The notes under the pieces were generated by a model. The model saw only the letters and a list, made by a program, of their open reading frames with translations, did no database searches and was not told the origin of the DNA. A DNA stretch of 38,354 nt. Origin: Oscillibacter sp. Its GTDB lineage: Bacteria > Bacillota > Clostridia > Oscillospirales > Oscillospiraceae. This document shows, one piece after another, positions 9,345 through 16,319 of the stretch. The stretch is taken from NCBI GenBank assembly GCA_022791135.1, contig JAAVYM010000022.1, positions 1 to 38,354 on the forward strand, read 5' to 3'. A program made the position numbers and the translations under genes. Position 1 is the stretch's first letter. Each line of letters starts with the position of its first letter.

Positions 9345-9728
9345 TCAAGGGGCCTCTTTTCTCTCCTGCTGTTCATCTATCTCTCCCAGGATCATTGCCA
9401 CGCCATTTGTGATCCGATGGTAAAGGGACAGCAAATCCGCCAAATAGCGTATCCCACTCACGGTAATTTGATAGTATTGCCTCCGTCTCCCATCCGGCGC
9501 GTTTTTTTTATATGCCTCAAGAATATAGCCATTTTCGATCAGCCGGTAAAATAGCATGTAGGGAGACGCCAGACTCAGCGTATTCCCAGATTCCTGCTCA
9601 ATGCATCGTGTAATCTGCGCGGCATGCATGTCCTCCCTGCTCAGCAGAGTTAAGACCAGCATCTCCGTAACCGCCCGTTTCAGGTTGTCCTCCATACCCT
9701 TCCCTGGGTCATTTTTCAATACAGGCAT
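9345..9728 (-). CDS. PadR-family transcriptional regulator
   Basis: A small winged-helix DNA-binding protein, 127 aa. The core runs from MEDNLKRAVTEMLVLTLLS through the recognition-helix region (LASPYMLFYRLIENGYI). The wing follows (YKKNAPDGRRRQYYQITVSGIRYLADLL), and then a C-terminal helix for dimerisation. This is the compact PadR subfamily 2 layout. PadR proteins usually repress a neighbouring operon and are released by a small ligand. The start is taken at ATG 9728 with GGAAGGGGGG upstream; ATG 9695 is an alternative. Its candidate promoter (9909-9938) faces away from the promoter of the three-gene operon at 10082, with 353 bp between the coding regions, so that operon is its likeliest target. 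Confidence 0.82.
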   Translation of the reverse strand: MPVLKNDPGKGMEDNLKRAVTEMLVLTLLSREDMHAAQITRCIEQESGNTLSLASPYMLFYRLIENGYILEAYKKNAPDGRRRQYYQITVSGIRYLADLLSLYHRITNGVAMILGEIDEQQERKEAP

Positions 9729-9908
9729 AACGCCCCCCTTCCGCCAGCGTAAATACTTCGGCCGTCCATGAGGCCGAAAAGCGAGCTGCATTCCTTTTAA
9801 ATCAAACACGTTCAGCCGTCAATGCGGCCCACGGCACTGCTGCCTATCGCCGGACTGAAAAAGCCGGAGGGTTCTTTTCCTCTCAACCCACCGCAAAGCG
9901 CTATAAAA

Positions 9909-9938
9909 ATGATACAACATCCACTGTCTTCCCGTCAA
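9909..9938 (-). promoter_or_regulatory. Candidate promoter of padR
   Basis: Minus strand: -35 TTGACG (9938-9933), 18-nt spacer, -10 TATCAT (9914-9909). Confidence 0.6.
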
Positions 9939-9988
9939 TATAGCATGAAAAAGTTTATATTCTAATTTTTCTTTCTTAGAGAGAAAGC

Positions 9989-10017
9989 TTGACAACAACG
10001 TTTTTCAATGGTATTCT
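9989..10017 (+). promoter_or_regulatory. Promoter of the unknown three-gene operon
   Basis: -35 TTGACA (9989-9994), 17-nt spacer ending in TGG (extended -10), -10 TATTCT (10012-10017). The coding start is 65 bases further on. A frame beginning at this TTG would start translation inside the promoter and is rejected. Confidence 0.8.
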
Positions 10018-10081
10018 TTCCCTAGAGCGGCTCTGTACTTCGCTTATAAGCAATTTCAACCGACAGGAGGAGAATGCACAC

Positions 10082-10678
10082 ATGGACATTCCAAGTAGTC
10101 TTTTTTCTCACGTTTCCCCGTACTCCGGGACGGGGAGAGCGCGGGCAGCACAGGGATCCGGACAGAAATCGGCTTTCGCAGAGTATCTGGATGTAGACCG
10201 CCAGCGGCAAAAGATGCGGGAGCTGCCGCCGGGCCAAAGCCTGTCCTCCGTGTACATGCAGTTCAAGGACGATTACCGTGCCTGGAAGGCCCGGCAGACG
10301 GAGGAAACTCCTCCAGACTCCCAGGGCTGGACAGAGGAAAATCTGGAGTTCCTGCGGGAGCGCTTTGCCGGAAAAGACCTGTCCGCCTTCGAGATCTACG
10401 ACGCCTTGGAAACGATGCAGGAGCAAGGCATCCTCAGCTGGAAGGCCATGCGCTGCGCTGAAGGAAGCTGCATGATTGCAATCGATCGGGAGGGCGGGAT
10501 TTGCATGACTAACGCAGACCCGGATTCTACCACCGCCTGGCTGCACGGATTTGACAAAGCGCCCATGACCGGTTTTCACACCCTGGATGATATCCTCGCC
10601 TGGGCGAAGGACTTTCGTGAGGAAGAGCATCCGGACTTCATCACCCAGGCGGAGGCAATCGCCCGGGGCTGGATTTAA
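10082..10678 (+). CDS. Protein of unknown function, first gene of PadR-linked operon
   Basis: 198 aa, not recognised. The first 40 residues are rich in Ser, Gly, Ala and Arg (FSHVSPYSGTGRARA), look disordered and end in FAEYLDV. A helical, charged middle follows. Residues about 83-118 (WTEENLEFLRER, then EIYDALETMQEQGILS) line up with the helix pair that is also found in the next gene and in the protein at 15642: a Leu-rich helix, E/W-x-D-L-x-x-x-x, then G-[AI]-[IL]-S. The C-terminal part contains IAIDREGGICMTNADP and a helix ILAWAKDFREEEHPDF. No signal peptide or membrane segment. ATG 10082 follows an AGGAGGA site; the frame is also open upstream but across the promoter. Next gene begins 28 nt downstream. 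Confidence 0.85.
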   Translation: MDIPSSLFSHVSPYSGTGRARAAQGSGQKSAFAEYLDVDRQRQKMRELPPGQSLSSVYMQFKDDYRAWKARQTEETPPDSQGWTEENLEFLRERFAGKDLSAFEIYDALETMQEQGILSWKAMRCAEGSCMIAIDREGGICMTNADPDSTTAWLHGFDKAPMTGFHTLDDILAWAKDFREEEHPDFITQAEAIARGWI

Positions 10679-10706
10679 AATGAACCGCTGAAAGAGAGGA
10701 CATGGC

Positions 10707-11303
10707 ATGGATACGGGAGTAAACTATATTGTCAACAACACAGGCATCCCCACCTCGGAGTGGGGGAAATACAAGCCGGCAGGGGTAAACCCGGACGGGC
10801 CATCGGTGGACTTCTCGGACCTTTTATCCGGCAAAAATCAGGAGATCGCCGATAAGCTCACGGATGGGGCACGGAACACTTTGCAGCGGCTGAAGGCCAA
10901 TCCCAACGCCATTTCCAAGGTGGAGTGGATGGACCTGATGCACGAGCTGAACGCCATGGGAGCCATCAGCGACACAGATTACCAAGGAACCGACATGATG
11001 TTCCATCTGGTGCCCCTGGGGGATATGGACAACCCCTTCCCGACCTCGGCGGACATGCGGGATACGCTGGATCGTATCAACCACTGGCCGGGAAACCCCC
11101 TGGACTATCTGGACCAGTGGGCCTTTTCCCTGAAAAAATGGGGCGCGGAACTGTCCCGGGAGCTGAATCCCGACGGATCGCCCAAATACAAGGACGTCTC
11201 GCCGGTCTATGACCAGGCGGCGGCCTGCGGGCGGGTGTCCGGGCTTATCAAGAGCCTGCTGTCGGCGGACCTGTCTGCCTCCGGGCAAGGAGGGCATTCA
11301 TGA
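10707..11303 (+). CDS. Protein of unknown function, paralogue of the protein at 15642-16319
   Basis: 198 aa, not recognised, no signal peptide or membrane span. Residues about 50-175 form a domain clearly shared with the minus-strand protein at 15642. Shared blocks are EWxxLxxELxxxGAIS (about 73-88), D-h-x-x-x-hPLG (about 97-105), WxGxPLxYLDxWAxxLxxW (about 127-145) and DGSPKxxDxSPxxxQxxACxxVxxL (about 156-180). The conserved Trp, Pro and Gly residues suggest a folded unit that ends in a helix bundle. It lies second in the operon, and its stop overlaps the next start (ATGA), so the two products are probably made in matched amounts. Confidence 0.87.
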   Translation: MDTGVNYIVNNTGIPTSEWGKYKPAGVNPDGPSVDFSDLLSGKNQEIADKLTDGARNTLQRLKANPNAISKVEWMDLMHELNAMGAISDTDYQGTDMMFHLVPLGDMDNPFPTSADMRDTLDRINHWPGNPLDYLDQWAFSLKKWGAELSRELNPDGSPKYKDVSPVYDQAAACGRVSGLIKSLLSADLSASGQGGHS

Positions 11304-11929
11304 ACATGGGGGTGCTGTTCGATTTGACGGCGCCGGACTATACTGCGCGCCTTTGCAGGACGCACAGGGTCTCCGGCCCGTCCGCCTTTGCCGGGAGGCT
11401 GACGGCGGAACGGGAAACGCCTGTCCACCGTTTCATCCAGGGACCCGGATTCTCTTTGCGGATGGGGAAAAATATTCTTTGCAGCGGCGGTGTGGGCGGC
11501 GCGAATGTACAGACCTACGAAGCGGAGTTTATGGAAGACTCCACAGATGAAGACCCCATTGTCCGCATCACAGGCGCCGCAAGCAGCGGAGCGTTTGACT
11601 TCACCTGCCATATTCGGGACATCGACCCCGCCAACGCCTCCTACGCGGAGCTGGCGGCGTTGAACCGCTGGCTCTGCCGTACCGGGACATACCAGACGAA
11701 GTTTCCCAATCAGGCCGGGAATATACTGCCCTGCGGGATGCGCGGCATAGACTGCAGGGATATCTCAGAAAAACGAGACTTTATCCGTGAACTCCAAGGC
11801 TTCCTGGCATCGGCCTCGAATTCCGGTTCCTACCCGAAGTTTGGCCCCGAAACATATGCCTTTGCGCGTGAGCTGCTGGAAACCTATCAGGCATTTTCCC
11901 ATGGACAAACGGCCGCTTCCGGCGCATAA
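11300..11929 (+). CDS. Protein of unknown function, third gene of PadR-linked operon
   Basis: 209 aa, not recognised. The first half looks beta-rich and glycine-containing (FSLRMGKNILCSGGVGGANVQTYEAEFMED, then VRITGAASSGAFDFTCHIRDID). The second half is helical (ASYAELAALNRWLCRT, DFIRELQGFLASAS, YAFARELLETYQAF). No signal peptide, membrane segment or catalytic motif stands out. The start ATG overlaps the stop of the preceding gene, with AAGGAGGG upstream, so it belongs to the same transcription unit. A terminator follows 33 nt after its stop. Confidence 0.85.
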   Translation: MNMGVLFDLTAPDYTARLCRTHRVSGPSAFAGRLTAERETPVHRFIQGPGFSLRMGKNILCSGGVGGANVQTYEAEFMEDSTDEDPIVRITGAASSGAFDFTCHIRDIDPANASYAELAALNRWLCRTGTYQTKFPNQAGNILPCGMRGIDCRDISEKRDFIRELQGFLASASNSGSYPKFGPETYAFARELLETYQAFSHGQTAASGA

Positions 11930-11962
11930 GCCCGCACCGGAAACCTCACCTCACCAAAAGCA

Positions 11963-11998
11963 GGACCTGGAGACAGCTTGCTGTCCCCAGGTCCCGCT
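11963..11998. terminator. Terminator between convergent units
   Basis: 14-bp stem (11963-11976 with 11981-11994, CTTG loop, one mismatch that becomes G-U on the minus RNA). It is placed between the unknown operon (+) and the VOC/exonuclease unit (-). T runs are weak on both sides. Confidence 0.65.
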
Positions 11999-12069
11999 TG
12001 TCTATAAACAGCCGCCGCTCAGCTCCTTAGCAGGCCGCAGCCTGCAAGGCCGGTTTTCCGGCGTGGCCC

Positions 12070-13376: not shown

Positions 13377-13405
13377 TTGCCAGCGGAGGAAAAATGGAGT
13401 AGGAT
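13377..13405 (+). promoter_or_regulatory. Promoter of the SUFU-thrE operon
   Basis: -35 TTGCCA (13377-13382), 17-nt spacer, -10 TAGGAT (13400-13405), with the ATG 37 bases further on. Confidence 0.6.
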
Positions 13406-13442
13406 AGAGGTAAATTTCCGCATACGCCACAAGGAGGTTTCA

Positions 13443-14258
13443 ATGATGGGATTTTTGGACAGATTCAAAAAGAAGGCGGAAGCCCCGCCTCCCGGACGCA
13501 AGACGGGCACGGCCCCCCAGACGGAGGAATACTCCCCCGGCGGGTCCGCCATCTACCGTTACCAGCCCTTGGAGGACCGGGGCTTTCGCCCTCCGGACGA
13601 CACATGCGTCTCCATGGAGGCCATCGAAAAGCATATGGAGGCGATTTTCCCAGGCGGGGAAGGCTTCGTCTACCATGAAATCCTCAGCGACCTGGTCCAT
13701 ATTGACGTGCATGTCCTCCGGGGTCCCCGGGCGGAGGACGGAACCATCCTCTACACCACCGGCATGAGCGATTTGCCCATGAGCCTGCCGGAGGAGATCT
13801 CGGACCGGGAGGACCTTAAATACGCGGAGCTGTATATGATTCTTCCCGGGGACTGGAACCTGGGCGAGGAGGGAACCAGCCCCAAGGATTTGCCCCATGA
13901 ATGCTTCTGGCCCGTCCAGATGCTGAAATTCCTGGCCCGGTTTCCCCATGAGTACAAGACCTGGCTAGGCTGGGGGCACAGCATTCCCAACGGACCGGAG
14001 TACGCCCCCGTCTGCGACGGCGTGAGCTTTGGCGGCGCGGTGCTGGCCCAGCCGACCCTGGTGCCGCCCCTAACCACGGAGAAGGGAAAGGAAATCAGCT
14101 TCTACATGGTCGTTCCCGCCTACAAGGAGGAAATCGAGTACAAGCTGAAATACGGTATGGAGGGCCTGTACCAACGCTTTATCGAGGGGAAGCTCCCCAT
14201 GACGCTGGATATTCACCGGCCCAATTTCTGCGAGGATTTCCAGGAGATACTGGACTGA
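13443..14258 (+). CDS. Suppressor-of-fused (SUFU) domain protein
   Basis: 271 aa. After a Lys/Pro-rich N-terminus the protein has the bacterial SUFU pattern: EAIEKHMEAIFPG, VYHEILSDLVHIDVHVL, ILYTTGMSDLPMSLPEE, YAELYMILPGDWNL, and CFWPVQMLKFLARFPHEYKTWLGWGHSIPNG. In bacteria this fold is known from comparative genomics as a frequent immunity or accessory protein of toxin systems; its biochemical role is mostly unproven. No toxin gene is nearby. Start: first of two adjacent ATGs at 13443 after AAGGAGG. It ends 3 nt before thrE, so it is co-transcribed with the exporter genes. Confidence 0.88.
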   Translation: MMGFLDRFKKKAEAPPPGRKTGTAPQTEEYSPGGSAIYRYQPLEDRGFRPPDDTCVSMEAIEKHMEAIFPGGEGFVYHEILSDLVHIDVHVLRGPRAEDGTILYTTGMSDLPMSLPEEISDREDLKYAELYMILPGDWNLGEEGTSPKDLPHECFWPVQMLKFLARFPHEYKTWLGWGHSIPNGPEYAPVCDGVSFGGAVLAQPTLVPPLTTEKGKEISFYMVVPAYKEEIEYKLKYGMEGLYQRFIEGKLPMTLDIHRPNFCEDFQEILD

Positions 14259-15641: not shown

Positions 15642-16319
15642 TCAGCCGCGCCGGCCACTAAGCCCACTCAGTCCCTCCACCAGGTCCGCCACCTTCCGGC
15701 AGGCATCGATCTGGCTGGTAATCGGCGAGAAATCGCTGAATTTGGGAGAGCCGTCCGCCGCCCGCTGCCGGGCCAGGTCCTTCTGCCAGTCCTCCAGCTC
15801 AGACGCCCATAAATCCAAATACTCCAGCGGGTCTCCCGTCCAGCCTCCGCTGGCCAGCCAGGCCCCCGTGGAACCCTGAGCCTGTTCCTGCATGTGAAGT
15901 AGCTGATCCTTCAGCATCGGTGGGGTGTCATATTGGATAAAGTTTCCCAGGTCATCGTAATACCCGAGGGGGATCATATGGAGATCCCCCCGGGTGTAGT
16001 CAAACTCGCTTTGGCTGATTGCGCCGGCGTCCTTCAGCTCCCGGCAGAGGGTGAGCCACTCATCCTTGCGGACGCCGCCCTTTCCATCCCGCACCCTCTC
16101 CAGCACGCTCTGCGACGCAGCGGAAAGATAGGCATACAGCGCCCGCAGCTGGGCATCCTCCGCCTCCTGCTCCTTGGTCTTTTTGACCTTTTCCAGGGAG
16201 GAGGTCATGGTGGCGCTGATCACCTCATCCAAAAAGGACCGTCCCCTGTTTTGCCCGGGCATGGGAAACGCCTGCTGGCCAAGCCCGCTATAGATGTGGC
16301 TGTATCCAGATAGCTTCAT
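15642..16319 (-). CDS. Protein of unknown function, paralogue of the protein at 10707-11303
   Basis: 225 aa, not recognised, without signal peptide or membrane span. The N-terminus (YSHIYSGLGQQAFPMPGQNRG) is Gly/Ser/Gln-rich and resembles the N-terminus of the protein at 10082. A charged helix follows (SSLEKVKKTKEQEAEDAQ). From about residue 65 to 218 it matches the protein at 10707: EWLTLCRELKDAGAISQSEF, DLHMIPLG, WTGDPLEYLDLWASELEDW and DGSPKFSDFSPITSQIDACRKVADL. ATG 16319 has a perfect AAGGAGGTACATCT leader, and a strong promoter lies 60 nt upstream. It is transcribed alone and divergently from marR. Confidence 0.87.
   Translation of the reverse strand: MKLSGYSHIYSGLGQQAFPMPGQNRGRSFLDEVISATMTSSLEKVKKTKEQEAEDAQLRALYAYLSAASQSVLERVRDGKGGVRKDEWLTLCRELKDAGAISQSEFDYTRGDLHMIPLGYYDDLGNFIQYDTPPMLKDQLLHMQEQAQGSTGAWLASGGWTGDPLEYLDLWASELEDWQKDLARQRAADGSPKFSDFSPITSQIDACRKVADLVEGLSGLSGRRG

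What the first reader, a model, noticed from the sequence alone, without database searches (positions are those of the whole stretch)
9728..11929. PadR-controlled three-gene operon of unknown function
Three compact, tightly coupled genes (10082, 10707, 11300) have a good promoter, an ATGA overlap and a terminator, and are divergent from a PadR regulator. A CTTTCT/AGAAAG inverted repeat sits directly before the -35. None of the three proteins shows a family motif I recognise, and none has a signal peptide or membrane span. PadR regulation points to a ligand-triggered response, so this is the best candidate for a new system here.
Basis: partly seen in the sequence, partly recalled or inferred. 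Interest (0 to 1): 0.75.

Follow-up and report, generated by a model that had tools for sequence, protein, structure and literature searches.

The report
Mobile PadR cassette linked to flagella
A small switchable gene set in some Oscillibacter-type gut bacteria makes three or four proteins of unknown families that appear to work as one complex; related genes are found far more often in bacteria with flagella, and the proteins start like ones that are pushed out through the flagellum, so they may be cargo or brakes for it.

Summary
Three compact genes (10082, 10707, 11300) with a sigma-A-type promoter, a dyad before the -35 and an ATGA overlap lie divergent from a PadR gene. Family libraries and PDB profile searches gave no convincing match. 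padR<>P1-P2-P3 keeps its order in five other genomes, apparently of genus Oscillibacter, away from the window's neighbouring genes; all three genes are under purifying selection; two other genera carry fusions (P3+P2, P3+P1). Some relatives add P5, a paralogue of P2; the window's own P5 lies at 15642-16319. In four of the five relatives a small, apparently one-TM protein follows PadR; its likeness to HAAS sensors is weak, and the window lacks it. New clues point to flagella: flhA occurs in 7 of 8 carriers against 20 of 64 non-carriers in the genus, and in 8 of 10 P3 carriers against 78 of 390 others in the family; and all four window proteins have F-x-x-x-[LV] at residues 29-40 of their leaders, as early flagellar export substrates do. 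Best reading: a transferable cassette making a complex exported by, or docking at, the flagellar export gate. Export is untested, no neutral control gene was run, and one flagella-free genome has distant relatives.

The parts
9345..9728 (-). padR: PadR-type winged-helix regulator (GTG start at 9809 possible)
   Evidence: PF03551 39.8 bits, cut-off 27; 50-57% identical orthologues divergent from the operon in 5 of 10 relative loci examined
9971..9987 (.). dyad CTTTCT-N5-AGAAAG, putative PadR operator
   Evidence: L020 has a different, 11-bp dyad near the same place, AATTTTTAATG-T-CATTAAAAATT
9989..10017 (+). sigma-A-type promoter TTGACA-17-TATTCT, TG before the -10
10082..10678 (+). P1, 198 aa, unknown family; leader with F32-AEY-L36
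   Evidence: 64-70% identical in 6 relative loci; found fused behind a P3 domain in L063
10707..11303 (+). P2, 198 aa, helical in the model, unknown family; leader with F36-SDL-L40
   Evidence: dN/dS 0.07-0.18; a P5/P2-type domain is fused behind P3 in L046
11300..11929 (+). P3, 209 aa, beta strands plus helices (low-confidence model), unknown family; leader with S28, F30, L34 invariant in 8 rows
11958..11999 (+). strong hairpin after the operon, no T run
   Evidence: z -5.8; not a classical terminator
15642..16319 (-). P5, 225 aa, paralogue of P2 (32% identity over 153 columns) at a second place, with its own TTGACA-17-TATACT promoter
   Evidence: nearest fetched relative is the partial L026 copy (56%), which also lies on another contig than the operon of that genome

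Best explanation
A transferable, PadR-switched cassette whose products P1, P2 and P3 (with P5 as a further P2-like subunit) act as one complex. Proposed steps: (1) PadR sits on the dyad before the -35 and represses; in relatives a small membrane protein next to it may sense the envelope and release it. (2) P1, P2 and P3 are made in coupled fashion and assemble through the P3 domain. (3) Their unstructured leaders, with a hydrophobic start and an F-x-x-x-hydrophobic motif about 30-40 residues in, dock at the flagellar export gate (FlhB/FlhA), and the proteins are exported to act on the outside or become part of the flagellum. Shown: operon layout, divergence, synteny, purifying selection, fusions, a statistical link with flagellated genomes, the leader motif. 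Inferred: repression, the complex, docking and export.
For: Synteny padR<>P1-P2-P3 in 5 of 10 relative loci from 8 genomes; none of the 7 other window genes tried lies beside those five. Fusions: L046 joins P3 (37%, 1e-29) and P5/P2 (46%, 8e-49); L063 joins P3 (41%, 2e-30) and P1 (43%, 2e-14; profile 4e-19). Flagella: flhA in 7 of 8 P2-family carriers of the genus against 20 of 64 non-carriers (p 0.0035; 0.011 with the window's own genome counted as negative); in 8 of 10 P3 carriers against 78 of 390 other genomes of the family (p 1e-4). In family genomes at least 90% complete: 7 of 8 against 53 of 237 (p 2.6e-4). The own genome has a rod/hook-type ORF that reads as flgK (PF00460 over cut-off), flagellin-family pieces, a flgN-like ORF (below cut-off), and ORFs that read as cheA and cheW by eye. 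Leaders: F-x-x-x-[LIVMF] with F at 26-42 in 14 of 18 members, 4 of 4 window proteins, against a shuffle mean of 2.4 (0 of 5000 reach 14) and 65 of 285 background ORFs. Proteins of the same genus that read as FliK (F33), FliE (F34), FlgD (F39) and FlgE (F41) fit too. In P3 the only invariant leader positions after M1, N2 are S28, F30, L34; the P2 leader, unstructured in the model, is 96% conserved against 91% for residues 41-190. Motif and spacing resemble those of early flagellar substrates (PMC8983047, passages). Sigma-28-like sites (11 of 12) lie before the L063 fusion and the L067 P3 gene.
Against: No export, binding or expression data. The motif is short: 23% of background ORFs have it (that set still held family members and some chance ORFs), and I set the position range after seeing the sequences. 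Four of 18 members lack it. The window operon has a sigma-A, not a sigma-28, promoter, and the fetched cassettes do not lie in flagellar gene clusters. flhA was not found in the window's genome (84.5% complete), nor in G037 (73%); the flhA of G015 is a fragment. G138, complete and without flhA or rod genes, has a marginal P3 relative (E 1.8e-4) and an array of proteins with similar leaders. No neutral accessory gene was run as control, and genomes are not independent. Only 2 of 9 distinct 11-of-12 sigma-28-like sites in the fetched DNA lie before members, 2 of 20 member upstream regions have one, the own flgK has none, and only 1 of 7 flagellin upstream regions that I could place had one, so that signal is poorly calibrated.
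Confidence: 0.4

Rival explanations
1. A cytosolic complex of an envelope-stress response under PadR (and, in relatives, a small membrane partner) with no link to flagella; flagellated lineages merely keep more accessory genes.
For: Small apparently one-TM protein behind PadR in 4 of 5 syntenic relatives and in L046; HAAS-PadR pairs are proposed as a membrane-signal switch (PMC11237479, passages); no TM segment by hydropathy in P1-P3; G138 has distant relatives without flagella; no neutral control for the association.
Against: Does not explain the leader motif at a near-fixed place in different domains or the enrichment seen within the genus, across the family and in nearly complete genomes. 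HAAS itself is below cut-off (L046) or without a match (L025).
Confidence: 0.3
2. A brake on motility: the proteins dock at the export gate through their leaders but are not exported, so the mobile element or the stressed cell shuts flagella down.
For: Same leader data; shortened FlgD and FlgE variants that stall inhibit export and swimming when expressed in trans (PMC8983047, passages); recombinases beside L046, L025 and L047 members; a phage is reported to remodel host flagella (PMC13418256, abstract start in a search listing only).
Against: F at 29-36 lies in the spacing range that paper links with export rather than stalling; sigma-28-like sites before two relatives hint at co-expression with flagella.
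Confidence: 0.15
3. A defence or toxin-antitoxin type module carried by integrative elements.
For: Patchy distribution, different surroundings, recombinases near L046, L025 and L047 members; a CHAT-NACHT-TPR gene next to the cassette in L021.
Against: No PADLOC model matches P1-P3 (E up to 1); P5 only at 0.037; no catalytic family in P1-P3. Phage and plasmid records gave no match to the P3-P2 fusion, and viral contigs gave no locus (in one search one stretch was said to encode a relative but no locus was returned). P1 was not searched there.
Confidence: 0.1

Closest known systems
HAAS-PadR switch (PMC11237479, passages)
   Same: PadR gene divergent from the target operon; in relatives a small, apparently one-TM protein directly behind PadR
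   Different: The window has no such gene; HAAS is below the Pfam cut-off in L046 (18.4 of 27 bits) and unmatched in L025, the only two scanned; the controlled genes are not the partners described in the passages read
Early flagellar export substrates such as FlgD and FliK (PMC8983047, passages)
   Same: Unstructured N-terminus (P2 and P3 models), hydrophobic residues near the start, F-x-x-x-hydrophobic motif about 30-40 residues in
   Different: No match to any rod, hook or FliK model in Pfam; not in a flagellar operon; export not tested
DUF6033 (PF19498) and its tandem neighbours
   Same: Tandem proteins with M-x-[IV] type starts and F-x-x-x-[FV] with F at 28-32 in 4 of 5 L068 proteins; in this genus DUF6033 only in flhA-positive genomes
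   Different: P1, P2, P3 and P5 do not match PF19498; of the L068 proteins one is over the cut-off and one below, and that genome has no flagella
Phage-borne control of host flagella (PMC13418256, abstract start in a listing only)
   Same: Mobile genes acting on flagella, if the reading here is right
   Different: That is an RNA-guided regulator; here protein cargo or a plug is proposed

Membership tests
PadR regulators | PF03551 winged-helix domain over cut-off | tested here: met
   39.8 bits, cut-off 27
HAAS-PadR dyad | HAAS-domain protein encoded next to PadR | tested here: not met
   Window: no match, best tblastn E 0.42 and not beside padR. Relatives: small protein with one apparent TM (by eye) behind PadR in 4 of 5 syntenic genus loci and in L046; HAAS/DUF6120 below cut-off in L046, none in L025; the other three were not scanned
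Early flagellar T3SS substrates | F-x-x-x-hydrophobic motif about 30-40 residues in, behind a hydrophobic start | tested here: met
   P1 F32, P2 F36, P3 F30, P5 F29; chance rate about 23% per protein; the hydrophobic start was judged by eye
Early flagellar T3SS substrates | host encodes the flagellar export apparatus | tested here: inconclusive
   Own genome: flgK-type ORF and flagellin-family pieces found, flhA not found in an 84.5% complete assembly
Early flagellar T3SS substrates | export through FlhAB-FliPQR | not testable with these tools
   needs a secretion assay with and without flhA
Early flagellar T3SS substrates | flagellar operon or sigma-28 control | tested here: not met
   Window operon has a sigma-A promoter and no good sigma-28 site; 11-of-12 sites only before relatives L063 and L067
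DUF6033 | PF19498 over cut-off | tested here: not met
   no match for P1, P2, P3, P5 at E up to 1
Known anti-phage defence systems | PADLOC model match | tested here: not met
   only P5, E 0.037

The most novel reading that the evidence does not exclude
A mobile, stress-switched cassette that adds a foreign multi-subunit complex to the host's flagellar export route: a horizontally moved 'app' for the flagellum, part of a larger undescribed superfamily in Oscillospiraceae in which many different domains share one flagellar-type export leader.
Probability: 0.3. Interest if true: 0.78.

Novelty: new variant of a known kind. Interest (0 to 1): 0.58.

Why it matters
If the proteins are exported, this would be a transferable set of flagellar cargo under its own switch in gut Clostridia, a group where flagella matter for immune and phage recognition (recalled). 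It would also give a testable handle (leader plus F-x-x-x-hydrophobic motif) on a large group of unannotated small proteins. If not, the cassette is still a conserved, fused and apparently mobile unit of undescribed families under a PadR switch.

Tried and rejected
Family libraries: no match for P1, P2, P3, P5 in Pfam, NCBIfam, PHROGs or PADLOC beyond noise. The SHOCT-like stretch in P5 and two relatives stays below cut-off. The P2/P5 profile had PDB hits down to E 0.0013, to de novo TIM barrels with no stretch passing on its own; dropped as chance. Common ancestry of P1, P2 and P3: I thought I saw a shared motif, but profile comparison gives probabilities below 1%, so I do not claim it. Phage, plasmid and viral collections: phages and plasmids were searched with the P3-P2 fusion alone, no match; viral contigs with P2, the P2/P5 profile and the P3 profile gave no locus, though says one stretch encodes a relative. 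Sigma-28 control of the window operon: no. Flagellin upstream regions as a yardstick worked poorly: the start-finding script placed 2 of 23 loci; 7 of 24 gave a start, 6 of them apparently an internal Met, and 1 of 7 had an 11-of-12 site. One label in the script is wrong ('non-own genera'): the seven flagellated P3 genera include the own genus. Literature: no paper in the library names DUF6033; searches for PadR with flagella or Oscillospiraceae, Oscillibacter with flagellar secretion, and non-flagellar cargo in Firmicutes (10 listed of 15, 187 and 42) showed nothing on this cassette in the titles and abstract starts that I saw.

In one search, 6 further proteins were printed but left out of the count of 18: the 5 L068 proteins (4 with the motif) and the upstream gene in L064 (with the motif). 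The background of 285 ORFs in that call was not cleared of family members. Not done: P1 was not searched in genomes by itself; the L035 locus was not examined for gene order; no TM or signal-peptide predictor was run.
Full report
What is there. The three ORFs, the divergent padR, the promoter, the dyad and the ATGA overlap are all in the sequence as described. The PadR start at 9728 fits the alignment with relatives, in which identity begins near residue 32 of the longer GTG reading. A strong hairpin follows the operon (-29.2 kcal/mol, z -5.8) but without a T run.

A conserved unit. A P2-family match is in 9 of 119 genomes, the window's own included, all in one genus (G037 has only a P5-type match). 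Around the hits I examined 10 loci from 8 other genomes: L020, L021, L022, L025 and L027 hold padR divergent from P1-P2-P3 in order; L024 has P5-P2-P3 without P1 or padR; L028 has P1 and P2, P2 with a stop; L023 has P2 alone beside a transposase (PF00665); L029 has a P5-type gene alone; L026 a partial P5-type gene at a contig end. Of 7 other window genes used as queries none lies near these cassettes; the one hit is a weak 24% match to the transporter in L026. One further P2 locus (L035) was not examined for order. dN/dS is 0.15-0.25 for P1, 0.07-0.18 for P2 and 0.18-0.25 for P3.

A fourth gene. P5 (15642-16319, minus) is a paralogue of P2 (32%). In L020 and L021 a P5-type gene is the first gene of the operon; in L025 and L027 the DNA before P1 still resembles, by eye, the start of that gene, as if it had been deleted. 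The window's P5 is nearest to the L026 copy (56%) and has its own promoter, so it is a second locus rather than simply the operon's displaced first gene.

Fusions. L046 (G463, another genus of the family) has one 416-aa ORF with a P3 domain and a P5/P2 domain, divergent from a PadR gene and a HAAS/DUF6120-like gene, both matches of the latter below cut-off. A Rep, an FtsK-type ATPase and a large serine recombinase stand beside it, as in an integrative element. L063 (G148) has a 364-aa ORF with a P3 domain and a P1 domain. Such fusions are usual evidence that separate proteins work together.

Distribution. The P2/P5 profiles match 3 of 400 family genomes and, in the class, only the window's own among 391. 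The P3 profile matches 10 of 400 family genomes in 8 genera, one of them marginal (G138, E 1.8e-4). P1 was not searched by itself. A large serine recombinase also follows the cassette in L025, and a resolvase lies beside the L047 gene.

Regulation. In L021, L022, L025, L027 and L046 a small protein with one apparent TM segment follows padR (not seen in L020). Only two were scanned: L046 matches DUF6120 and HAAS below cut-off, L025 nothing convincing. HAAS-PadR pairs are proposed as a membrane-signal switch (PMC11237479, passages). The window has no such gene. The alignment of upstream regions shows a shared frame but other letters at the dyad; L020 and L046, the two searched, have other dyads there. 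This would fit a diverged PadR (50-57% identity). Binding is inferred.

Flagella. I tested flhA (PF00771) because the leaders looked like flagellar export leaders. 16 of 19 carriers of any member have it. Of the three without, the window's genome has a flgK-type ORF, flagellin-family pieces, a flgN-like ORF below cut-off, and ORFs that read as cheA and cheW; G037 has four rod/hook-type matches, G138 none. Background: 86 of 400 family genomes over the cut-off, and 27 of the 72 other same-genus genomes (the 72 is my reading of the handle and genus numbering). The family tests assume that searches drew the same 400, which their handles suggest. Fisher tests: genus 7/8 against 20/64, p 0.0035, or p 0.011 with the window's genome as negative; family 8/10 against 78/390, p 1e-4; by genus 7/7 against 29/99 with the marginal genus left among the non-carriers, p 3e-4, or p 0.002 with it as a miss; family genomes at least 90% complete 7/8 against 53/237, p 2.6e-4. 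The counts of 36 genera and 60 nearly complete genomes include two genomes of one genus with flhA matches below the cut-off, which works against the result. These tests ignore kinship, and no neutral control gene was run; that is the main weakness. DUF6033 was in 5 of 119 genomes, all same-genus and all flhA-positive (p 0.006); as a related-looking family it is not a neutral control.

Leaders. A motif F-x-x-x-[LIVMF] with F at residue 26-42 is in 14 of 18 members, including all four of the window; shuffles of residues 2-60 give 2.4 on average and none of 5000 reaches 14; 65 of 285 background ORFs have it, a set that still held family members and chance ORFs. Members are partly homologous, so the count is not 18 independent events; for the four window proteins alone chance is about 0.003. 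I chose the position range after seeing the sequences, though the motif is from the literature (the F-x-x-x form is recalled; the paper's passages give FLTLL). In P3 the leader varies except M1, N2, S28, F30 and L34; the P2 leader is unstructured in the model (pLDDT about 30) yet 96% conserved. In FlgD the gate recognition motif is residues 36-40 and must lie at least about 19 residues behind a hydrophobic start (PMC8983047, passages); P2 has F36-L40. In this genus the proteins that read as FliK, FliE, FlgD and FlgE have F at 33-41, those that read as FlgB, FlgF/G and FlgC at 45, 44 and 59, and the flgK-type ORF has none (names by eye). Two relatives (L063, L067) have 11-of-12 sigma-28-like sites 92-110 nt upstream, where the density in the fetched DNA predicts 0.006 per 300 nt; 7 of the 9 distinct sites of that strength lie elsewhere, one of them before a neighbour gene in L064. 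The flagellin yardstick was poor, so this is a hint only.

Verdict. That this is a conserved, PadR-linked, mobile unit whose proteins act together I hold at about 0.8. That it works through the flagellar export gate I hold at about 0.4.

Noticed in passing
window 13377-14258 (+): SUFU-domain protein (PF05076, E 1e-36) 1.4 kb beyond the operon.
   Followed up: no
L021:1415-5215 (+): CHAT-NACHT-TPR protein of 1266 aa near the cassette in G015, a defence-like architecture.
   Followed up: no
L065:3679-8161, L066:6806-7914, L062:5892-7271, L048:2784-4861: P3- or P2-like genes stand next to small proteins with signal-peptide-like starts (by eye), in L065 interleaved with them; the pairing may be functional.
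   Followed up: partly
L026:521-1165, L063:7005-7739, L065:4907-5575: A further group of proteins of about 200 aa next to P5 or P3 genes; the L026 and L063 members have the same kind of leader, the L065 one does not within residues 26-42.
   Followed up: partly
L068:3433-7301 (+): Tandem array with DUF6033-like and MSVSGIG-type proteins in a complete genome with no flhA or rod genes: an unexplained exception if such leaders serve flagellar export.
   Followed up: partly
L073-L077: DUF6033 (PF19498) over cut-off in 5 of 119 genomes, all five same-genus and flhA-positive (p 0.006).
   Followed up: partly
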